A stretch of DNA of 22,455 bases from a virus, in IMG/VR virus record IMGVR_UViG_3300012928_000048, positions 1-22,455 of that record. One strand, written 5' to 3'. The notes under the pieces are model-generated. The model did no database searches and was not told the origin of the DNA. It was given only the letters and a program-made list of their open reading frames with translations. Shown here one piece after another: positions 299 to 15,320 of the stretch (the stretch's first letter is position 1; every line of letters starts with the position of its first letter). The translations under genes were made by a program, and so were the position numbers.

Positions 299-634
299 AT
301 GGCTGAAGATATTGGGCAAGACGCTAATATATTTCCTGACGGGTTACCTGTATTTATCTATACATTCTTAGAACACGATGATGATGGTGTCTTACAGCAT
401 GAGACTACTCTTTGTATAGAAGGAGAAGAAGACGTTATTGTTACCAAGGGGTTCTACGAGATTATAGATGATATAAAAGAGGAACACGCAGATAATAACG
501 ACTACAATGCACTATTTGAAATGGCTGCAGAGCTAAACAAAGAAGCTGAGAGGTTACGGGAAGAAGCGGAAAGAATAGAAAACAGTACCAGAAGTGTAGC
601 TGATCTATTTAACGCTAATGCACCAACAGCTTGA
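299..634 (+). CDS. Acidic hypothetical protein with C-terminal coiled coil
   Basis: I do not recognise this 111-residue protein. It is rich in Asp and Glu, with an N-terminal half that looks like mixed beta structure and a charged heptad-like helix at roughly residues 70-100 (Leu-Asn-Lys-Glu-Ala-Glu-Arg pattern) suggesting a coiled coil. It has no signal peptide or membrane segment. A purine-rich CAGGG eight bases before the ATG can serve as ribosome binding site. It is first in the transcript from the promoter at 240 and its end overlaps the endonuclease VII gene by 17 bases, so the two are probably translationally coupled. Small acidic proteins in first position are often early host-interaction factors, but that is only context. 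Confidence 0.7.
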   Translation: MAEDIGQDANIFPDGLPVFIYTFLEHDDDGVLQHETTLCIEGEEDVIVTKGFYEIIDDIKEEHADNNDYNALFEMAAELNKEAERLREEAERIENSTRSVADLFNANAPTA

Positions 635-1034
635 TTTATTTGGTTTTACAGACTTACCCCTTGAAGGGGATACTAAGGTTTGTATAAAGTGCAAGGAAGA
701 GAAACCCCTAGCAGCATTTGGCAATAGTTCTGGGGCTAACTATAAGAGGCCTGAGTGCAAGGAGTGCAATAGGGAGTTGTCTAGGATAAGAGATAATCTT
801 AGGGCTACCCACGGTATGCCAGACGAGGACTACAGGTGTCCTATCTGTTGCAGAGGGGCTGAAGAGGTAAAAGGCAAAGGGGGCAAGAACAATGGCCCTT
901 GGGTGCTAGACCACGACCACAAGACGAATGAATTTAGGGGATGGCTATGTCATACCTGTAATAGAGGGCTTGGGGCTTTTGAAGATGATCCCATGAGGAT
1001 GCTTAAAGCCGTAGCCTATGTGGAGAATACATAA
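618..1034 (+). CDS. Recombination endonuclease VII-like HNH nuclease
   Basis: This 138-residue protein matches the endonuclease VII family, which in T4 (gp49) cleaves Holliday junctions and other branched DNA before packaging. Visible landmarks are a first zinc-binding set C22-x2-C25 and C47-x2-C50, a second pair C74-x2-C77 with C111-x2-C114, and between them the nuclease core with D98, H99, D100, H101 (LDHDHKT), followed by the family signature FRGWLCHTCNRGLGAFEDD. The closing Asn (N115) after the last cysteine pair also fits. The ATG at 618 has no clear Shine-Dalgarno and overlaps the previous gene, so coupling is likely. The extra N-terminal CxxC pair is a common addition in phage versions. 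The family call is firm. The precise substrate is inferred from T4. Confidence 0.93.
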   Translation: MHQQLDLFGFTDLPLEGDTKVCIKCKEEKPLAAFGNSSGANYKRPECKECNRELSRIRDNLRATHGMPDEDYRCPICCRGAEEVKGKGGKNNGPWVLDHDHKTNEFRGWLCHTCNRGLGAFEDDPMRMLKAVAYVENT

Positions 1035-4920: not shown

Positions 4921-6763
4921 CAAAACTGCTAAGATACCTTATGCGTATAAGGCTTCAGAGGATGATCCACTAGTACTGGTTCCAGATGAAGAGAAGGCAG
5001 TATTAGTTGAAGAGGCGTTAGACTATCTGGAGAATGGACACTCTTCCAGAAAAGCTGCAGCGTGGTTAGCCTCTAAGACAGGGGACAAGATAAGCCACCA
5101 AGGTATTATACATATTTGGCGTGACCGTAGAGGTAAAGACTCAGACAACCCCTCTAAGGTATTGGCAGAGAGAGACAAGGCTAACCGTAAGCGTAAGCCT
5201 AAGACTGCTAAAGATAAGAAGATGGCTGCAGCCAAGCGTAAGCAGACAGACGCAAAGCGTAGGCTTACTATGGCTAAGAAAAAACTAGATGAGCTTACGC
5301 CTAAAGAAGAGACTGTCACAGAAGGTTTGGACTTCTCAGTAATTAAGTCTAAACAACAAGAACAAGAGGTAGTATTTTCTCCTAATGCAGGGCCACAGAC
5401 AGAGTTCCTTGCAGCGTCAGAAAGAGAAGTACTATACGGTGGAGCCGCAGGTGGTGGTAAGAGTTACGGTCTACTTGCTGATCCTATGCGTTATTTTGAT
5501 AATCCTAATTTCAATGGGCTTATTCTTAGACGGACTAACGATGAACTTAGGGAACTAATCTTTAAATCTCAGGGTCTATATCCCAGAGCATTTAAGGGGG
5601 CCAAGTGGCAGGAAAAGAAGTCTCAGTGGACGTTTCCCAGTGGGGCTAAATTATGGCTTACATATCTAGAGCGTGACCAAGACGTACTTCGTTATCAAGG
5701 TCAGTCATTTAGTTATATAGCTGTAGATGAGCTAACCCAGTATGCCACTAGCTTTGCGTGGAACTATTTAAGATCAAGGCTTCGTACAACGGACCCTGAC
5801 TTACCTATATACATGAGGGCTACTACTAACCCCGGAGGTATAGGACATGGATGGGTGAAGAGAACCTTCATTGATCCTGCCCCTGCAAACAGAAAGTTTG
5901 TGGCAACTAACATAGAAACGGGTGAGGAGTTAGTATACCCAGAGGGACACGACAAGGAAGGGGAGCCGCTATTCTACCGTAGGTTTATACCTGCTAGTTT
6001 GCAGGACAATCCCTACCTCATGGAAAGTGGTCAGTATGAAGCTAACCTGTTGTCTCTGCCAGAGATGCAGCGTAGGCAGTTATTAGAGGGTGATTGGGGA
6101 GTAGCAGATGGGGCGGCTTTTCCAGAGTTTAGGCAAAAAGATCACGTTATTGAACCATATGATATTCCGACTGATTGGACCAGATTCAGGTCATGTGATT
6201 ATGGCTATTCTAGTTTTAGCGCAGTTCATTGGTTTGCTATTGACCCTTCATATGACACCTTAATCTGCTATAGGGAACTATATGTATCTAAACACACGGG
6301 CAGAGATTTAGCTAGAGCCGTGATGGAAGCAGAGGGTAGTGAGAAGATACAGTACGGAGTACTGGATAGCTCTTGTTGGCATCAACGAGGGCAAATTGGT
6401 CCATCTATAGCAGAGGAAATGATATCTCAGGGCTGTAGGTGGAGGCCTAGTGATAGAAGCAGCGGAGCTAGGGTGGCAGGTAAGAACAGATTACATGAAG
6501 TTCTTAAAGTAGATGAAGTTACAGGAATGGCAGGAATACAGTTTTTTAATACCTGTAGACAAGTTATAGCAGATTTGCCTATAATTCCTTCGGACCCTAA
6601 AGGTGGTGATGATATTGACGCTAGAACTTCGCAGCAAAGACACACATACGACTCAATTCGGTATGCCGTTATGAGCCGACCAAAGGCATTTTCGCCTTTT
6701 GATATGGGCAATGGCGTACCTCAACAAAGTTGGCGACCTGCCGACTCAATTTTTGGATACTAA
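4883..6763 (+). CDS. Terminase large subunit with N-terminal recombinase-like extension
   Basis: This 626-residue ATPase/nuclease pumps DNA into the head and cuts it. I chose ATG 4883 because the nine residues before it (from 4856) look non-native and relatives I recall begin MTV. Walker A is GGAAGGGKS at residues 186-194. Walker B is YIAVDE, with D282 and E283. The nuclease carboxylates are probably D439 (CDYG), D495 (LDSS) and D590 (HTYDS). Unusual is the first 150 residues: PYAYK (19-23), LVPDEEKAVLVEEALDYL and a helix-turn-helix-like part to ISHQGIIHIW, resembling the linker/DNA-binding domain of large serine recombinases, then a Lys/Arg-rich helix (about 84-140). The usual terminase core starts near residue 165. 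Confidence 0.95.
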   Translation: MTVTIWLNKTRPNKTAKIPYAYKASEDDPLVLVPDEEKAVLVEEALDYLENGHSSRKAAAWLASKTGDKISHQGIIHIWRDRRGKDSDNPSKVLAERDKANRKRKPKTAKDKKMAAAKRKQTDAKRRLTMAKKKLDELTPKEETVTEGLDFSVIKSKQQEQEVVFSPNAGPQTEFLAASEREVLYGGAAGGGKSYGLLADPMRYFDNPNFNGLILRRTNDELRELIFKSQGLYPRAFKGAKWQEKKSQWTFPSGAKLWLTYLERDQDVLRYQGQSFSYIAVDELTQYATSFAWNYLRSRLRTTDPDLPIYMRATTNPGGIGHGWVKRTFIDPAPANRKFVATNIETGEELVYPEGHDKEGEPLFYRRFIPASLQDNPYLMESGQYEANLLSLPEMQRRQLLEGDWGVADGAAFPEFRQKDHVIEPYDIPTDWTRFRSCDYGYSSFSAVHWFAIDPSYDTLICYRELYVSKHTGRDLARAVMEAEGSEKIQYGVLDSSCWHQRGQIGPSIAEEMISQGCRWRPSDRSSGARVAGKNRLHEVLKVDEVTGMAGIQFFNTCRQVIADLPIIPSDPKGGDDIDARTSQQRHTYDSIRYAVMSRPKAFSPFDMGNGVPQQSWRPADSIFGY

Positions 6764-6765
6764 AT

Positions 6766-8877
6766 ATGGCATTAATGGACAAACCTTTACCTGAAGACGC
6801 AATAGACACTAGTTTAGCTATGTCTGTAGAAGAGGATGGTAACGCAGAAGAGCAAAACATAGAGCTTTCTAACACAGTTGCCTACATAAAAAGTCAGTAT
6901 GAACGTGCAAAAGACGCTAGATTGTCTGATGAAGACCGTTGGCTAGATGCATACAGGAATTATAGAGGCGTTTATAGCTCTGAAGTACAATTTACAGAGA
7001 CTGAGAAGTCTAAGGCGTTTATTAAAGTAACTAAAACTAAGGTTTTGGCAGCATATGCCCAAGTTGTAGATGTATTGTTTGCAGGATCAAAGTTTCCTAT
7101 TGGTATTGAGGCCCGAAAGTATCCAAATAACGTAGAAGATACTGTATCTTACAATCCAAATAGACTTACTGAGAAAAAAGTTAAAGATCAGACTAATTTA
7201 GACTACAAAATTCCTTTAAATATAAGCAGACCAGACATTGCTAAAGATTTAGGAGTATACAAAGATAAACTAACTCCTATTGCAGACGAATTAGAGGTAG
7301 ATACTTCTAATATACAAGGGTCAATGGTGTATGAACCTGCAAAGGTAGCTGCACAGCGCATGGAAAAGCTGATGCATGACCAATTAGACGAGTCTGAAGC
7401 CCCAAAACACCTACGATCTGTAGCCTTTGAAACTTGTTTGTTTGGTACAGGCGTAATGAAGGGTCCTTTTGCACAATCTAAAGAATATCCAAGGTGGAGC
7501 GAAGACGGGGAGTACGATCCTATAATGGAAACTATTCCAAAAATGGAGTATGTTTCTATTTGGGATTTTTATCCAGACCCTGATGCACGAAATATGTCTG
7601 AAGCTGAGTTTACTATTCAGAGACATAGGCTTAATCGTACACAGCTAAGAAATCTTAAAAAACGCCCACATTTTCGAGATGAGTCCATAGAATTAGCTAT
7701 CAGCTACGGGGCAGACTACTACCGTAACTACTGGGAAGATGCCTTAGAGGAAGACAGTGTATCTGAACAGATGGATCGCTTTGAGGTTTTAGAATATTGG
7801 GGAGTTCTTGATAACGAACTAGCTGAAGAAGCTGACCTAGAGTTACCAGATGAATTAGCAGATCAAGATCAGGTACAAGTAAATATATGGGTATGTAATG
7901 GACAGATACTGAGACTAGTATTAAATCCGTTTACTCCTAGTCGTATTCCATATCTAGCAGTACCGTATGAGTTAAATCCTTACTCATTCTTTGGTATTGG
8001 TGTAGCTGAAAACATGACAGATACTCAATTGCTTATGAATGGCTTTATGAGAATGGCTGTAGATAATGGAGCCTTATCTGGTAACCTACTTATCGAAGTA
8101 GATGAAACTAATTTAGTACCCGGCCAAGACCTACAAGTCTATCCGGGCAAAGTCTTTAGGAGACAGGCAGGAGCACCCGGACAAGCTATCTTTGGAACTA
8201 AATTTCCGAACGTAAGCCAAGAACTTTTGATGATGTTTGATAAGTCTAGGCAGTTAGCTGATGAGGCTACTGGTATACCTAGTTACTCGCATGGTTCTGG
8301 AGCCGTAGGTGGGGTAGGCAGAACCGCCAGTGGTATGTCTATGCTCATGGGGGCTGCAGCGCAAAATATTAAAGCAGTGGTACGAAACATTGATGACTAC
8401 CTTCTAGGTCCTTTAGGCAAAAGTCTATTTGCATTCAATATGCAGTTTAACTTTGATAAAGAATTTACTGGAGACTTGGACGTAAAAGCCAGAGGCACAG
8501 AAAGCCTGATGCGAAACGAAGTCCGAAGTCAGCGTCTACTACAGTTTATGCAAATGACCGCTAATCCACAGATGGCTCCGTTTGTTAAGTATGACTTTAT
8601 TCTAAGAGAACTAGCTTCCAGTATGGACCTAGATGAAGACAAGATACTTAATGATCCACGAGAAGCCGCAATACAACAGAAGATGATGGCTGAGATACAG
8701 GCAATGATGCCTCAACAGCCACAGCCGCCTACGCCACCAGTTCCAGAAGGCGCAGGTACACCACAAGCCCCTACACCTGATACTCAAGGATTTACTGGTT
8801 CAGGTGGTGGAGCCAATGGCGGTAATGCGCCACAGCCAGATCAACCCCCACCCACAGCAAATGAGGTAATTCAATGA
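6766..8877 (+). CDS. Portal protein
   Basis: This 703-residue protein starts three bases after the terminase stop. An in-frame ATG at 6730 inside the terminase gene is unlikely. It forms the ring at the packaging vertex. Typical features are the N-terminal helical region RWLDAYRNYRG, LAAYAQVVDVLFAG, a wing domain with FGTGVMKGPF (from residue 226) and SIWDFYPDPDARN, and the crown/stem part with PYELNPYSFFGIGVAENM, ADEATGIPSYSHGSG and GRTASGMSMLMGAAAQNIK, as in portals of P22-like and other podoviruses. The C-terminal 50 residues are a Pro/Gln/Gly-rich tail, probably disordered. Size and order (terminase, portal, scaffold, coat) agree. The stop overlaps a 23-residue gene. Confidence 0.92.
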   Translation: MALMDKPLPEDAIDTSLAMSVEEDGNAEEQNIELSNTVAYIKSQYERAKDARLSDEDRWLDAYRNYRGVYSSEVQFTETEKSKAFIKVTKTKVLAAYAQVVDVLFAGSKFPIGIEARKYPNNVEDTVSYNPNRLTEKKVKDQTNLDYKIPLNISRPDIAKDLGVYKDKLTPIADELEVDTSNIQGSMVYEPAKVAAQRMEKLMHDQLDESEAPKHLRSVAFETCLFGTGVMKGPFAQSKEYPRWSEDGEYDPIMETIPKMEYVSIWDFYPDPDARNMSEAEFTIQRHRLNRTQLRNLKKRPHFRDESIELAISYGADYYRNYWEDALEEDSVSEQMDRFEVLEYWGVLDNELAEEADLELPDELADQDQVQVNIWVCNGQILRLVLNPFTPSRIPYLAVPYELNPYSFFGIGVAENMTDTQLLMNGFMRMAVDNGALSGNLLIEVDETNLVPGQDLQVYPGKVFRRQAGAPGQAIFGTKFPNVSQELLMMFDKSRQLADEATGIPSYSHGSGAVGGVGRTASGMSMLMGAAAQNIKAVVRNIDDYLLGPLGKSLFAFNMQFNFDKEFTGDLDVKARGTESLMRNEVRSQRLLQFMQMTANPQMAPFVKYDFILRELASSMDLDEDKILNDPREAAIQQKMMAEIQAMMPQQPQPPTPPVPEGAGTPQAPTPDTQGFTGSGGGANGGNAPQPDQPPPTANEVIQ

Positions 8878-8945: not shown

Positions 8946-9160
8946 TGAATAAAGATTTCTATAGGTCCCTGTTACCTTTAGTAAATGACAAGGACCACTT
9001 TGATATTTTAGTGGGGTATGCAGACCAGAGGATTGAGGTTTTGCGTACTCTTCTAGAAACGTGCAAAGACCCTAACCGCATCCTAGAAATACAAGGCTCT
9101 ATAACGGAGCTTCGTAGGATAGCTACCCTTAGACATGAAACCCTAAAAGGTGCAGAATGA
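8945..9160 (+). CDS. Small helical protein between portal and internal protein
   Basis: This 71-residue protein starts at ATG 8945 in a TAATG junction. The GTG at 8927 would add six residues and overlap the four-cysteine frame, so it is less likely. It is all-helical by appearance: FYRSLLPLVNDKDHFDILVGYADQR, then a helix IEVLRTLLETC and a final one ITELRRIATLRHETLKGAE. The QG-x-x-x-ELRR-x-ATL-x-x-E pattern recurs, from memory, in unnamed podovirus proteins located just after the portal. A role as a portal-associated assembly factor is only inferred from position. The stop overlaps the ATG of the 930-residue gene (ATGA). Confidence 0.75.
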   Translation: MNKDFYRSLLPLVNDKDHFDILVGYADQRIEVLRTLLETCKDPNRILEIQGSITELRRIATLRHETLKGAE

Positions 9161-11949
9161 AGTTTACTGACCTTCTACAGCAATCTGATACCCCCGTTCA
9201 GGATGATCCTTTTATTATAGGGGATGGAGAGGATAATACTCCAAGTTATATTAGAGATCAAACTCCTATAAAAGGTAAAAGTACTGCAAACATTATTTCT
9301 GAAGGTATAGACCAGTTTGGAAAGGCTGTTGTTGAAGACCCAGTAGGTGTAGCCAAAGCTATCGGAACAGGTATATATGAAGGTGGCAAAGAGTTTGTGC
9401 AAAACCCTGTAGAAACTACTACTGAATTTGTTAGTGGAGTAGGTCAATCTATTGCAAATGTAGGAACTAAAAGTCTAGAGGATTATTTGCCTGAAGGAGT
9501 GACTGAAGATTCTGCTACTGCAGATCAAATGACACAAGCACGACAAGAAAGACTTAGTGATTATCTTAATGCTTCTATTGTAGTACCTGCAGCAAGTGGA
9601 GTAGTAAAAATAGGTACATCTTTATCAAAGGTTCTTCCTGAACTTGAAGTAGATGCTAATGCTTTAGGATCGATGGGTGGGAATATAAAAATTAAAAAAG
9701 ATAAGGTAAATGATTCTGACCTAAATGATGAAAACTTAGATACTCTTAACGAAGAGTTAATGTCTGTAGCCGCATATCAAGCAGCTAACATGGGTAAAAA
9801 TGGTGCTCCTCCTTTAAATTCTGTAAAAGGATATAAGTTATTTAGAATAAATAGAGAAACTGGTGAGTTATTTCCTTTATATGTAGATGCTAAAACTGCC
9901 ATTCCTTTAGATACATGGGTTCCTGCAATAGCAGGAGAATTAGCAAAATCTGGTAAAGTTAAATCTGAGATAGGTGAACTTGCATATCGCCCCGGATTTC
10001 ATGCTGCACAATTACCGTGGGTAAATCATATTGGCTCTAAATTTAAAATCTCAAAAGAAACTTACGATAAATTAAAAGCTGATGGCGCAAATAATTTAAT
10101 TGTAGAAAGAGAAAATATTTCAATAACTGAAGCTGAATATAATCAGTTGAAAGCTGCAGGAGAGGCTGTTTCAAGAAAGAAAAATAAAAAGGGAGAAATA
10201 AAATACACAAAAGCAGGAGAGACTAAGTACTTTGAGCGTTTACGCGATGAAGATACTGTCTGGGCAGAAATTGAATTACCTAATGATGTAGATTGGCAAT
10301 CAGAGGCAATTGCTAACGCTTCTATAAGGAAAGATGGTTCTATTGATCCTAAAACCGCCCATATAACAGATCAAATACCTGAAGGTGGTTTTTATTATTA
10401 TAATACTAAAGCAGGTAATCCTAATCAGTGGCTGATTGGTGGTTCTATGAAAATAAATAGAATACTTGATGATGCTGAAGTAGAACAAATCAATATGGAA
10501 GCAGGTGTGCTTGGTTCAGATATGCCAAGAAAACCATATAGTGAAAGTGGCACTGTACCTGCTACTGTAGTAGAACAAACAGAAGACCTTTTAGGTAATC
10601 GTATTTCTACTAGAGTTCCTATACAAGATACTAAAAAAACAGGAAAAGTTATTCTTCCTGAAACCTATAATAGAGACTTAGTAATTGATACTGATGTTAT
10701 GAGAGAGGCAGGTACTTTAGATAAAAACATAGATTTTCTTGCTGCCCGTAGAGATGGCTCCGCTGAGTATGATGGAGTAGATGCAGGTAGGTATTTTCCT
10801 GCATTTAAAGGCCTTGAAAACTTAGACCCTGAAGCAAGGCTCGAATATGTAAATGCTATGCAACAAAAAAATCTAGAATTTATTTTAGATAGATTGCCCA
10901 AACAATTTCAAGATAGAACTAAAGTTTGGTATGAGGGGGCCAATAGAATAGCAGGTGAATTAGCTGATAAGTATGGTGTGCCTCAATCTGCTATGTCGGC
11001 AACTATAGCTGCTTTATCTCCTCAGATGGATTGGTTTAGTAATGTATCTTTGGCAGAACGATTAGTAGATGTAGTTGTAAATAAAAGAAACATGGTTTTT
11101 ACTCCAGAAATGGAAGCGGCAGCTAAAAAATATCCTGTGTTTTTAAAAGATAAAAATAGACCTATTTTTGAAAGTATAAAAGGTAAGACATACGCAGAAT
11201 TAGAAACAGATATGCAAAAGGCTATGTGGATAAGGGCTTACGATCAAGCGTATAATCCTAGAACTCATAGATCACTTACGCCTGAAGGAGAAGTTGGAGA
11301 TATTATTCTTAATACAGATGGAAAACCAAAAGCTGTTTCATGGGGAAATTTTGGAGAAATAGCTAAAGCAGTAAAAGCAGTAGAAAGTAATGGAGATTTA
11401 AATATAATTTCTGATGCTTTAGGAGAACAACATAAAGTTAGAAATTTTTACAATAATATAGAAGTACCTTTTTCTGATTTTGGGGATGTAACTATAGACA
11501 CTCATGCTATTGCTGCAGGGTATATGAAACCTTTAGGTGGCTCTGATCCACTAGTTTCTCAAGGTCTAGGAACTGCAGGGTCTTCATCAAAAGGTTATGG
11601 TGCAAAAGGCATCTATGGAGTTACGGCTGATGTTTATAGAAATGTTGCAGACGATAGAGGATTACGTCCTAGAGAAACTCAATCTATTGTATGGGAAGCT
11701 ATAAGAACTTTATTTGATAAAGATAAGAAGAATTTACCTAATAAACAAAAGGTAAATCAAATATGGAATGCTTATGATAGAGGTGATCTTACTCAGGAAC
11801 AGGCACTTGGTCTTATAGAAGAGACATTTGGGAGCTTTCCTCAAAGAGTAATAGACCCTAACGAAAAACGCACCATAAAAGGTGGTGCTAGTACTATGTT
11901 TAACAAAGGCGGTTTAGTAACAGGCCTAATGTCACCAGAGGAAATGTAA
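9157..11949 (+). CDS. Large multidomain virion-associated protein (polyvalent-type) with glycosylase-like C-terminal half
   Basis: This protein of 930 residues starts in an ATGA overlap. Residues 1-190 are amphipathic and alanine-rich (EDPVGVAKAIGTGIYEG, FVSGVGQSIANVGTK) like internal virion proteins. Residues 225-437 hold a module I associate with phage 'polyvalent' proteins: GYKLFRINRETGELFPLYVDA, YRPGFHAAQLPWVNHIG (277-293), VWAEIELPNDVDW (from 368), and NQWLIGGSMKINRIL (423-437). Residues 575-880 form a second module: WYEGANRIAGELADKYG, SATIAALSPQMDWFSNVSLAERL (from 614), HKVRNFYNNI (from 759), VTIDTHA (778-784) and LRPRETQSIVWEAIR. This is close to an unnamed phage family (possibly DUF7178) and has landmarks resembling HhH-GPD DNA glycosylases. 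The tail ends MFNKGGLVTGLM. Codons look more AT-rich than in neighbours. Function is inferred. Confidence 0.82.
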   Translation: MKFTDLLQQSDTPVQDDPFIIGDGEDNTPSYIRDQTPIKGKSTANIISEGIDQFGKAVVEDPVGVAKAIGTGIYEGGKEFVQNPVETTTEFVSGVGQSIANVGTKSLEDYLPEGVTEDSATADQMTQARQERLSDYLNASIVVPAASGVVKIGTSLSKVLPELEVDANALGSMGGNIKIKKDKVNDSDLNDENLDTLNEELMSVAAYQAANMGKNGAPPLNSVKGYKLFRINRETGELFPLYVDAKTAIPLDTWVPAIAGELAKSGKVKSEIGELAYRPGFHAAQLPWVNHIGSKFKISKETYDKLKADGANNLIVERENISITEAEYNQLKAAGEAVSRKKNKKGEIKYTKAGETKYFERLRDEDTVWAEIELPNDVDWQSEAIANASIRKDGSIDPKTAHITDQIPEGGFYYYNTKAGNPNQWLIGGSMKINRILDDAEVEQINMEAGVLGSDMPRKPYSESGTVPATVVEQTEDLLGNRISTRVPIQDTKKTGKVILPETYNRDLVIDTDVMREAGTLDKNIDFLAARRDGSAEYDGVDAGRYFPAFKGLENLDPEARLEYVNAMQQKNLEFILDRLPKQFQDRTKVWYEGANRIAGELADKYGVPQSAMSATIAALSPQMDWFSNVSLAERLVDVVVNKRNMVFTPEMEAAAKKYPVFLKDKNRPIFESIKGKTYAELETDMQKAMWIRAYDQAYNPRTHRSLTPEGEVGDIILNTDGKPKAVSWGNFGEIAKAVKAVESNGDLNIISDALGEQHKVRNFYNNIEVPFSDFGDVTIDTHAIAAGYMKPLGGSDPLVSQGLGTAGSSSKGYGAKGIYGVTADVYRNVADDRGLRPRETQSIVWEAIRTLFDKDKKNLPNKQKVNQIWNAYDRGDLTQEQALGLIEETFGSFPQRVIDPNEKRTIKGGASTMFNKGGLVTGLMSPEEM

Positions 11950-13196
11950 TGGAACAAATGAAACCAAGACTAAGACCAGAGCAAGAAATAGATGTATCTC
12001 CTAGAGCAGAGGCAGGAGATCAATTCTTTGTACAACAGGCTGAGAGAGACAGAGAGTTACTAGAACAGTATCCATTGAAACCAATGCCAAGGCCAGAGCC
12101 AGAAGAGCGCCCAATGAGGCGAATGTTTAGTGACCCAGAGCCAAGTGTTCGTGAGTATATGCGTGAAGAGCAACAAACTGATGTGGTATCAGAAGAATAT
12201 ATGGTTGATGGACGTCCTGTACAACTTCCTGTTCTTGTATTTAAGGATGGTGGAAAAATTGCCTTCCAAAAAGCTTTGGACAATATAGTTGAAGCAGGAA
12301 ACGCAGGAGCAACTAATGTATATGGTATGTCTGGAGATAACAGTATGCCTTCTCTAGAGGATTTGTCTGATAGAGTAACAGATTTTATTAGACAGAATAA
12401 TCCTACCAGACAAGAGTTTGAAACTTTTTGGTATAACCCACAAGTGTTCGATGGAGGGTTTATAACAAAAGCAGATGGTATGAAAGGTCGATCAGAAGAA
12501 GATAAAGAAATTGCAGATGAGGTAGAACAAGTAGATGTTTCTGAAGCAGACAGAGATGAAGATGGATTTGTGTCTCCTTCAGAGCGTGAAATACAACTAG
12601 CTCTGCAAAAGAATGAATTAGTTGACGAGGAAGAGCTAGAGAAAATGAAGCCAGTAGAGGCTTATCATGGTGGTATGATGAGTTCTTGTGATGGTGGTCC
12701 TGATTGCACTTGCGGAATGGATGATCCAATGGTATCTGGATATGATGAAGTATCTGGTAACCCCATTCCAATTGGCTCCTCTGCAGAAAACGTGCGTGAT
12801 GATATTCCTGCTAATCTTAGCGAGGATGAATATGTACTTCCTGCCCATGTAGTGAAGTGGCATGGATTGAGACATATTATGGATTTGCAGAATGAAGCAG
12901 AAATGGGACTCATGGCTATGGAAATGAGTGGGCTTATCCATGAAGTATACGAAGAAGAACCCGATAGCGAAGGCGCTGATGACACCGAAGTTCAAGCCTC
13001 AGACGATACCAAACAAGAAGAGGCCGAAACGGAAGGAGAAACATCCGAAGAAATTCCATCCGAAATGATGGATGTAGAGGTCGCAGCCGTAGAGGTTGAT
13101 GACCATTTAGATGACGAGGAAGATGAAACACTCTATCCAATGTCGCAACCACTCCCTGCAATTATGAAGAAACAAAAAATAGTTTTTGCAGTTTAA
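11949..13196 (+). CDS. Acidic structural protein with EF-hand-like loop
   Basis: This 415-residue protein starts in a TAATG junction, with AGAGGA six bases before. It is rich in Pro, Glu, Asp and Met. Residues 201-212 (DRDEDGFVSPSE) fit a canonical EF-hand calcium loop. C247, C253 and C255 sit in a small Cys-rich knot. The best conserved block is residues 276-330 (ENVRDDIPANLSEDEYVLPAHVVKWHGL, then NEAEMGLMAMEMSGLI), which I recall from unnamed structural proteins of marine podoviruses encoded beside scaffold and coat. The C-terminal 80 residues are strongly acidic. A role as an internal or scaffold-associated head protein is inferred from position and composition. Confidence 0.8.
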   Translation: MEQMKPRLRPEQEIDVSPRAEAGDQFFVQQAERDRELLEQYPLKPMPRPEPEERPMRRMFSDPEPSVREYMREEQQTDVVSEEYMVDGRPVQLPVLVFKDGGKIAFQKALDNIVEAGNAGATNVYGMSGDNSMPSLEDLSDRVTDFIRQNNPTRQEFETFWYNPQVFDGGFITKADGMKGRSEEDKEIADEVEQVDVSEADRDEDGFVSPSEREIQLALQKNELVDEEELEKMKPVEAYHGGMMSSCDGGPDCTCGMDDPMVSGYDEVSGNPIPIGSSAENVRDDIPANLSEDEYVLPAHVVKWHGLRHIMDLQNEAEMGLMAMEMSGLIHEVYEEEPDSEGADDTEVQASDDTKQEEAETEGETSEEIPSEMMDVEVAAVEVDDHLDDEEDETLYPMSQPLPAIMKKQKIVFAV

Positions 13197-14270: not shown

Positions 14271-15320
14271 ATGGCATTCGCAAAAGCATCGGGCTATACC
14301 AATCTTAACTCAGGTAACTTCAGCCCAGTAATCTATAGCAAAAAGGTCCAAAAGGCCTTTAGAACGGCATCTGTTGTAGATGCAGTAACTAACACAGATT
14401 ATTCCGGGGAAATAGCTAACTTCGGGGACTCTGTTAAAATAATTAAAGAGCCAGATATCACAATCACAACATATGAGCGTGGTACTACTCTAGCAACTCA
14501 AGACCTCACAGACGCTGACTTCACTATGGTCGTTAATCAGGCAAACTACTTCCAGTTCGCAATTGACGATATTGAAGAAGCACACAGCCACGTTTCTTTT
14601 GGTGACTTGGCTAGTGACCGTGCAGGTTATAAATTGCGTGATACATTTGACTCAGAAGTCTTGCATCATATGGCAGGTTTTACTGGGGCAGGTGCAAGAC
14701 GTACTTCACTTGAAACAGGAAGCACCAAAGCAGACAGCAATGCCGATAATGACGAATTGCTACCTGCTAACAAATTAGATATCACTGACTTCGGTGGTTC
14801 TGATATTGGTGGTGCAGCAGAAATCACATCTATCCCAATCGCTGCAGGTGGCGGTGCAGGTGGTATTACTTCACCACTAGCAATCCTAAACCGTATTGCA
14901 CGACAAATGGATCAGGCTGCAGTAGACACTGATTCAAGATGGTGTGTGGTTGACCCTGTGTTTGCAGAAGTATTAATGGATGAAGATTCAAAATTAATTA
15001 ATTCTGACTTCGGTGGTGGAGATGAGCTACGAAACGGACGTATGCCCGGACAACTTCGTGGGTTCACAATCTACAAATCCAACAACCTACCTGCACTAGG
15101 TACAGGGGCAGGAACTGCAGCATCAGCAGGTTCAGAAACTAACATGAGTTTCCTAGTGGCAGGGCATTCATCTGCAGTAGCAACAGCGGAACAGATCGCT
15201 AAAACAGAGACTTTCCGTTCACCTACAACCTTCGCAGATATTGTTCGTGGAATGCAGTTATATGGCCGAAAAATTCTTCGTCCAGAAGCTCTATTCACAG
15301 CCGCTTACAACTTAGCGTAA
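14271..15320 (+). CDS. Major capsid protein
   Basis: This 349-residue coat protein of HK97-type fold has AGGAGA seven bases before its ATG. Characteristic features are an N-terminal arm (ASGYTNLNSGNFSPVIYSKKVQKAF), the E-loop/P-domain region with GDSVKIIKEPDITITTYE and LTDADFTMVVNQANYFQFAID, the spine helix (DLASDRAGYKLRDTFDSEVL), and the A-domain part with RIARQMDQAAVDTDSRWCVVDPVF and LRGFTIYKSNNLP. The C-terminus has DIVRGMQLYGRKILRPEALFTA, as in coat proteins of many marine podoviruses. A Gly/Ala-rich insertion at roughly residues 175-205 may be an external loop. It follows the scaffold and has its own promoter and leader. Confidence 0.92.
   Translation: MAFAKASGYTNLNSGNFSPVIYSKKVQKAFRTASVVDAVTNTDYSGEIANFGDSVKIIKEPDITITTYERGTTLATQDLTDADFTMVVNQANYFQFAIDDIEEAHSHVSFGDLASDRAGYKLRDTFDSEVLHHMAGFTGAGARRTSLETGSTKADSNADNDELLPANKLDITDFGGSDIGGAAEITSIPIAAGGGAGGITSPLAILNRIARQMDQAAVDTDSRWCVVDPVFAEVLMDEDSKLINSDFGGGDELRNGRMPGQLRGFTIYKSNNLPALGTGAGTAASAGSETNMSFLVAGHSSAVATAEQIAKTETFRSPTTFADIVRGMQLYGRKILRPEALFTAAYNLA

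What the first reader, a model, noticed from the sequence alone, without database searches (positions are those of the whole stretch)
10870..11700. C-terminal half of the 930-residue protein carries HhH-GPD glycosylase-like landmarks
The segment IAALSPQMDWFSNVSLAERL (residues 617-636) resembles the start of the endonuclease III fold, which reads IAVLLSAQATDVSVN with a following helix. Further on, HKVRNFYNNI (K760) and VTIDTHA (D781) resemble the region of endonuclease III that holds the catalytic Lys in the HhH motif and the catalytic Asp in VDTH. The spacing is 21 residues here against 18 there. If real, the phage packages or ejects a divergent DNA glycosylase/lyase-like enzyme fused to an effector-type domain. 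I associate the region with an unnamed phage family (DUF7178-like), and I know of no assigned activity for it.
Basis: partly seen in the sequence, partly recalled or inferred. Interest (0 to 1): 0.75.

Follow-up and report, generated by a model that had tools for sequence, protein, structure and literature searches.

The report
Phage-borne OGG-type DNA glycosylase domain
The end of a large phage protein, encoded beside the capsid portal gene, is predicted to be a DNA-repair-type enzyme that cuts damaged or modified bases out of DNA, and the same unnamed module occurs in hundreds of phages, often next to virion genes or fused to other predicted injected effectors.

Summary
Residues ~566-890 of the 930-aa ORF (9157-11949) are a DUF7178 domain. 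K760 and D781 are invariant in every relative examined (61/61 in one alignment; 56/56 non-redundant in a second survey), together with F764, Q842 and W846. AlphaFold gives a confident all-helical model. The window domain's top PDB match is Pa-AGOG, but not significantly. A stand-alone 194-aa family member matches only 8-oxoguanine glycosylases at ranks 1-15 (Foldseek probability 1.00 for the OGG2 structures, TM up to 0.61). Profile-profile comparison links stand-alone members to OGG2 (85%, P 6e-6) with K, D, D-x-H and the base-contact pair in register. The best relative is therefore OGG2, not endonuclease III; for the window's own long form the sequence link is transitive. The gene lies between portal and major head genes, and elsewhere the domain is fused to portal, ADP-ribosyltransferase or zeta-toxin domains, the pattern of injected 'polyvalent' proteins. 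Most likely it is a bifunctional glycosylase/AP-lyase carried into the cell with phage DNA. Substrate unknown; the OGG2 C-terminal-lysine sensor appears missing. I found no published description of DUF7178 as a glycosylase, though some stand-alone members are annotated 'glycosylase'.

The parts
9157..11949 (+). 930-aa ORF carrying the domain; lies between the portal gene (6730-8877) and the major head protein gene (14271-15320)
   Evidence: portal and major head assigned by Pfam/PHROGs
9310..9687 (+). N-terminal leader aa 52-177, shared with CRP-738 although the middle of that protein is different
   Evidence: BLASTP 40% identity over 128 aa, E 3e-18
9823..10182 (+). middle payload, aa 223-342 best stretch, PHROG 30118 (unknown function); the shared region with CRP-212 spans aa 146-460
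   Evidence: E 5.5e-43
10852..11820 (+). DUF7178 / HhH-GPD-like catalytic domain, aa 566-888 (modelled as aa 549-906)
   Evidence: Pfam PF23802; AlphaFold pLDDT 93.9, pTM 0.91; Foldseek
11005..11064 (+).
11077..11361 (+). approx. 95-aa insertion (aa ~641-735) present in long, fused forms and absent from stand-alone ~200-aa members
   Evidence: alignments
11398..11463 (+). helix-hairpin-helix equivalent (helix aa 748-755, turn, helix aa 759-769)
   Evidence: secondary structure of the model
11434..11436 (+). K760, predicted Schiff-base lysine
   Evidence: invariant; aligned with the HhH-GPD Lys of OGG2 through the stand-alone family
11497..11505 (+). D781-T-H783: predicted catalytic Asp and the D-x-H phosphate-contact position (D-x-W in actinophage members)
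   Evidence: OGG residue roles from PMC3397491
11680..11706 (+). last catalytic-domain helix with Q842 / W846 / R850, equivalent to OGG2 Asp194/Trp198 and hOGG1 Gln315/Phe319 (i, i+4)
   Evidence: roles
6730..8877 (+). SU10-type portal gene upstream (context)
   Evidence: Pfam SU10_portal E 7.4e-27
11949..13196 (+). 415-aa downstream gene (context); its homologue is fused to this protein in CRP-212
   Evidence: BLASTP 46.5% over 217 aa to CRP-212 gp38 aa 966-1171

Best explanation
The C-terminal domain is a divergent member of the HhH-GPD DNA glycosylase superfamily, closest to the OGG2/AGOG 8-oxoguanine glycosylases. It most likely flips a damaged or modified base out of duplex DNA, reads it with Q842 and W846, attacks C1' with K760 to form a Schiff base with D781 assisting, and then cleaves the strand by beta-lyase chemistry. 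It is one module of a virion-associated polyvalent protein (leader, swappable payload, glycosylase) made with the head genes, probably packaged and delivered with the DNA. My favoured role is to act on oxidised or otherwise modified purines in DNA met immediately after entry, either the phage's own weathered genome or host/rival DNA. Shown here: family, invariant residues, confident model, OGG-type fold of a stand-alone relative, gene context. Inferred: catalysis, substrate class, packaging, biological role.
For: Invariant K760, D781, F764, Q842, W846 across divergent members. AlphaFold model pLDDT 93.9 with K and D in the HhH-GPD slots; top PDB match of that model is Pa-AGOG. The stand-alone member's model hits MjOgg, TmOgg, SsOgg and OGG1 exclusively at ranks 1-15, probability 1.00 for OGG2 entries, TM up to 0.61. 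The stand-alone profile matches the OGG2 (PF22175) profile at 85%, P 6e-6, score 45.6 against a maximum of 26.9 in 100 column shuffles and 12.2 reversed. Long and stand-alone profiles match at 99.9%. BFVD's first hit bearing an enzyme name of this kind is an 'Endonuclease III' of Halogranum tailed virus 1. Portal-adjacent or structural-gene context in the window and in L031, L061, L081, L069, L048, L004, L055, L074; fusion to portal + ART-PolyVal + Zeta toxin in L065 and LPD22 + ART-PolyVal in zth2-2.
Against: No HMMER match to any HhH-GPD family. The window's own Foldseek hit is not significant (E 0.37). The long-form profile alone scores at shuffle level against OGG2. The canonical LPGxG hairpin is not present in the long form (LGEQHK), and the OGG2 C-terminal lysine that senses 8-oxoG has no visible counterpart in the stand-alone sequences, so 8-oxoG itself may not be the substrate. 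No virion proteomics and no biochemistry.
Confidence: 0.7

Rival explanations
1. Same fold, different chemistry: the domain is an HhH-GPD-derived enzyme used for DNA base modification or base exchange, or a pure AP lyase, rather than a lesion-excising glycosylase.
For: The 8-oxoG sensor of OGG2 appears missing. From my own knowledge, HhH-GPD-fold enzymes have been proposed in phage base-hypermodification pathways; I did not verify this here. Methyltransferase-like segments occur beside it in CRP-738 and MD07.
Against: The whole OGG catalytic and base-contact set is conserved in register. The window shows no recognisable base-modification operon, though only 22 kb is held. The CRP-738 methyltransferase call is itself weak (Pfam E 0.19).
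Confidence: 0.15
2. Offensive role: the glycosylase/lyase is a co-injected weapon that excises bases from host DNA, or from modified DNA of a competing phage, analogous in logic to Brig-type antiviral glycosylases.
For: Fusion partners elsewhere are effector or toxin domains (ART-PolyVal, Zeta toxin); Brig1 and Brig3 show that base excision can block phage replication.
Against: Brig enzymes belong to the unrelated uracil-glycosylase superfamily. Stand-alone members are ordinary non-structural phage genes with no linked immunity gene recognised.
Confidence: 0.25
3. The domain is a catalytically dead DNA-binding or structural relic that helps organise the packaged genome.
For: It is embedded in a large protein encoded among head genes.
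Against: Not one loss of K, D, Q or W among 56 non-redundant relatives; a structural relic would tolerate substitutions at catalytic positions. Stand-alone versions persist outside the structural module.
Confidence: 0.08
4. The resemblance is chance: an unrelated all-helical fold.
For: Sequence methods alone fail for the long form.
Against: Fifteen of the top fifteen PDB hits are one enzyme class; a profile match well beyond shuffles; matching catalytic residues and i/i+4 base-contact spacing.
Confidence: 0.05

Closest known systems
OGG2 8-oxoguanine DNA glycosylases (MjOgg 3FHF/3KNT, TmOgg 3N0U, SsOgg 3FHG; Pfam PF22175 Ogg-HhH)
   Same: Overall fold of the stand-alone member (TM up to 0.61); catalytic Lys and Asp; D-x-H; a Trp stacking position with a polar residue four before it; Arg four after it.
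   Different: Gln instead of Asp at the i-4 position; no C-terminal Lys sensor seen; degenerate hairpin; 20-22-residue K-D spacing and a ~95-aa insertion in the fused form; no HMMER-level similarity.
AGOG (Pa-AGOG, 1XQP)
   Same: Top PDB match of the window domain itself; longer linker between Lys and Asp helices, as in the long form; 'N-glycosylase/DNA lyase' is the annotation of two stand-alone relatives.
   Different: Match not significant (E 0.37); the AGOG Lys-Asp spacing is 32 (K140, D172); AGOG's own recognition residues were not tested.
Endonuclease III (Nth)
   Same: Same superfamily and Lys/Asp logic; K-D spacing 18 as in some stand-alone members; IAALSPQ resembles IAVLLSAQ.
   Different: Nth profiles do not match above background; no Fe-S cysteine loop in the domain sequence.
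Phage polyvalent proteins (Iyer et al. 2017, PMC5512222)
   Same: Multidomain architecture, portal adjacency or fusion, co-occurrence with ART-PolyVal, LPD22 and Zeta toxin in relatives.
   Different: The main text of that paper names no glycosylase domain; its supplements and figures were not read.
Brig1/Brig3 antiviral DNA glycosylases
   Same: Base excision used in phage-host conflict.
   Different: Uracil-DNA-glycosylase superfamily, bacterial defence rather than phage.

Membership tests
HhH-GPD superfamily | HhH-GPD helical fold | tested here: met
   Met for a stand-alone family member: Foldseek probability 1.00, TM up to 0.61 to OGG2. For the window's own model only a sub-threshold AGOG top hit.
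HhH-GPD superfamily | Catalytic Asp in the GPD region and, in bifunctional members, catalytic Lys after the hairpin | tested here: met
   Both invariant in all members examined; placed in the expected helix positions.
HhH-GPD superfamily | Canonical LPGxG-type hairpin | tested here: not met
   Stand-alone members have GPK or similar, long forms mostly GxxHK. The hairpin is degenerate; AGOG's hairpin is also non-canonical.
HhH-GPD superfamily (Pfam PF00730) | Detectable by the curated family model | tested here: not met
   Only DUF7178 matches.
OGG2 (PF22175) | Profile similarity | tested here: inconclusive
   Stand-alone profile 85%, P 6e-6; long-form profile at background; not matched by the Pfam model.
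OGG2 | Strictly conserved C-terminal lysine (8-oxoG sensor) | tested here: not met
   C-termini of stand-alone members end ...HGVA...GSAN...GKAE...NINR; role of the lysine from PMC3397491.
OGG2/OGG1 | Base-contact pair (Asp194/Trp198 or Gln315/Phe319, i and i+4) | tested here: met
   Q842/W846 invariant, aligned with OGG2 D..W.
OGG2/AGOG/OGG1 | 8-oxoguanine excision and AP-lyase activity | not testable with these tools
   Needs biochemistry.
Endonuclease III | Sequence-profile similarity to Nth | tested here: not met
   Scores equal to reversed and shuffled controls.
Polyvalent proteins | Several unrelated enzymatic or LPD domains in one polypeptide | tested here: met
   For relatives: L065 portal+ART-PolyVal+DUF7178+Zeta; zth2-2 LPD22+ART-PolyVal+DUF7178. 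The window protein has DUF7178 plus one domain of unknown activity.
Polyvalent proteins | Packaged and injected with DNA | not testable with these tools
   Inferred from portal-to-head-gene location and portal fusion in L065.

The most novel reading that the evidence does not exclude
DUF7178 is a virus-specific clade of OGG-like glycosylase/lyases delivered from the virion inside polyvalent proteins: base excision used as an early-infection weapon or counter-defence, on a substrate other than 8-oxoguanine.
Probability: 0.3. Interest if true: 0.85.

Novelty: new variant of a known kind. Interest (0 to 1): 0.6.

Why it matters
It gives a testable enzymatic assignment to a family of unknown function. 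Two scans of a viral collection each found more than 330 encoding stretches (332 and 353), against two matches in 84,980 bacterial and archaeal species genomes scanned with one pattern. It would add base excision to the activities that phages appear to build into portal-associated, probably injected polyvalent proteins. The candidate catalytic residues are named, and small stand-alone members offer easy material for assay and structure.

Tried and rejected
HMMER searches against PDB with the protein and with two family profiles: nothing. Pfam and NCBIfam at loose cut-offs: only DUF7178 and chance hits. Home-made Nth, MutY, MagIII-like, AlkA and OGG1-like profiles against DUF7178: at reversed-control level, so the endonuclease III reading was dropped in favour of OGG2. 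Long-form profile with and without its insertion against OGG2: at shuffle level, so the sequence argument for the window is transitive. Membership in the Brig family was rejected because those are uracil-glycosylase superfamily. The N-terminal payload (PHROG 30118) gave no Pfam or PDB relative. Literature: no paper mentions DUF7178, and none combines N-glycosylase, DNA lyase and phage genome; the library is open-access only. Scripted comparisons used small hand-gathered alignments (11 OGG2 sequences), so the probabilities are indicative.

Full report
What is there. The window holds a 930-aa ORF at 9157-11949 (+), two genes' width downstream of an SU10-type portal gene and upstream of the major head gene. 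The quoted residues are at the stated positions. Pfam assigns DUF7178 (E 1.3e-23, two stretches split by an insertion) and PHROGs assigns family 3842 to the same region, both without known function.

Relatives. In annotated phage records the domain occurs in large proteins of CRP-738, zth2-2, MD07 and Rctr197k (two tandem copies) and in stand-alone ~200-aa proteins of cyanophages, actinophages and roseophages. Several stand-alone proteins are annotated 'glycosylase' or 'N-glycosylase/DNA lyase' by their depositors, so the idea is not wholly new; I do not know how those names were reached. Scans of viral contigs found 332 and 353 encoding stretches in two passes, against two loci among 84,980 species genomes in one pattern scan. 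One of those two is not obviously a prophage: its neighbours include genes that PHROGs lists under cellular-type functions.

Conservation. In a 61-sequence alignment (61 distinct inputs, 21-67% identity to the window) W591, Y592, A618, L620, S621, P622, W626, N629, K760, F764, D781, H783, Q842 and W846 are invariant. In a second survey of 56 non-redundant members K, F, D, H, Q and W are at 56/56 (that survey is mostly long forms because stand-alone hits were split and filtered by length). Actinophage stand-alone members have D-x-W where the others have D-x-H. The scan patterns lay in the IAALSP motif, so conservation there is partly selected, but conservation at K, D, Q and W is not.

Structure. 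The window domain folds confidently (pLDDT 93.9, pTM 0.91). Secondary structure puts K760 at the start of helix 759-769 after a short helix and turn, and D781 just before helix 782-789. Foldseek against PDB gives no significant hit for this model, but rank 1 is Pa-AGOG (E 0.37, probability 0.51; the next hits, terpene synthases, have probability about 0.1). The model of a stand-alone member (194 aa, pLDDT 93.8), which lacks the ~95-aa insertion, gives 8-oxoguanine glycosylases at ranks 1-15, with probability 1.00 for the OGG2 entries and TM up to 0.61, although the E-values (0.013 at best) do not reach 0.001. In the viral library the family members themselves come first, and an annotated endonuclease III of Halogranum tailed virus 1 appears with probability 0.98.

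Sequence-profile test. Bacterial HhH-GPD profiles (Nth, MutY, AlkA and others) do not match. Eleven OGG2-type proteins found with PF22175 in bacterial genomes give a profile that matches the stand-alone DUF7178 profile at 85% (score 45.6, P 6e-6), against a maximum of 26.9 in 100 column shuffles (mean 13.7) and 12.2 for the reversed profile. The alignment pairs K with K, D with D, D-x-H with D-x-H, Q with the OGG2 Asp, and W with W, with the following R also in register. The review PMC3397491 gives the roles: OGG2 His148 contacts the phosphate (Trp in the bacterial OGG1 CacOGG1), and Asp194/Trp198 (Gln315/Phe319 in human OGG1) contact the base. I compared several templates and two profile versions; a smaller DUF7178 set gave 62%. 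The long-form profile alone does not reach OGG2; it matches the stand-alone profile at 99.9%.

What it is not. [quoted passage not shown] It is not a Brig-type enzyme.

Context and role. The long form sits directly downstream of portal genes in several unrelated phages (L031, L061, L081, L069, L048), beside terminase (L004), an internal-virion-protein-like gene (L055) or a tape-measure gene (L074), and in L065 it is fused to portal, ART-PolyVal and Zeta toxin domains. The window protein is modular: a leader (aa 52-177) shared with CRP-738, a middle payload that differs between them, and the C-terminal domain. The polyvalent-protein paper describes this architecture as packaged and injected, with Alt and MuF as prototypes, and its main text mentions no glycosylase. 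I therefore infer, without direct evidence, that the domain is delivered into the cell and acts on DNA there.

Confidence. Fold and superfamily about 0.9; lysine-dependent glycosylase/lyase chemistry about 0.75; OGG-type (purine) substrate about 0.5; delivery from the virion for the window protein about 0.65; repair of the phage's own genome versus attack on other DNA is open.

Noticed in passing
window 9592-10536 (aa 146-460): Middle domain (PHROG 30118) of unknown function, shared with CRP-212 gp38; CRP-738 has a different segment at this place that aligns with MD07 (record annotated 'methyltransferase'). No Pfam or PDB relative found.
   Followed up: partly
L018 3188-6799 (CRP-212 gp38) and window 11949-13196: CRP-212 carries the DUF7178-like protein fused to the homologue of the window's next gene (46.5% over 217 aa), suggesting that the two products work together.
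   Followed up: partly
L003 3202-5967: A relative 85% identical to the window protein over aa 52-930 starts with a different N-terminus that resembles CRP-738 (51% over 173 aa), suggesting exchange of leaders.
   Followed up: partly
L065 3244-9258: Single 2005-aa ORF with portal, ART-PolyVal (below Pfam cut-off), DUF7178 and Zeta-toxin domains.
   Followed up: no
L010 611-6730: Virus Rctr197k protein with two tandem DUF7178 copies plus a 2'-5' RNA ligase / LigT-type domain.
   Followed up: no
L012, L013, L014: A SprT-like protease gene lies within a few kb of the stand-alone DUF7178 gene in three actinophages; may be coincidence of early-region gene content.
   Followed up: no
window 618-1034: Endonuclease VII-like (HNH-type) gene, PHROG 2633, E 1.8e-24.
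   Followed up: no
L180: Porticoccaceae MAG contig with a stand-alone DUF7178 gene whose neighbours match PHROGs named porphyrin biosynthesis and peptidase; may be phage or chromosomal.
   Followed up: partly
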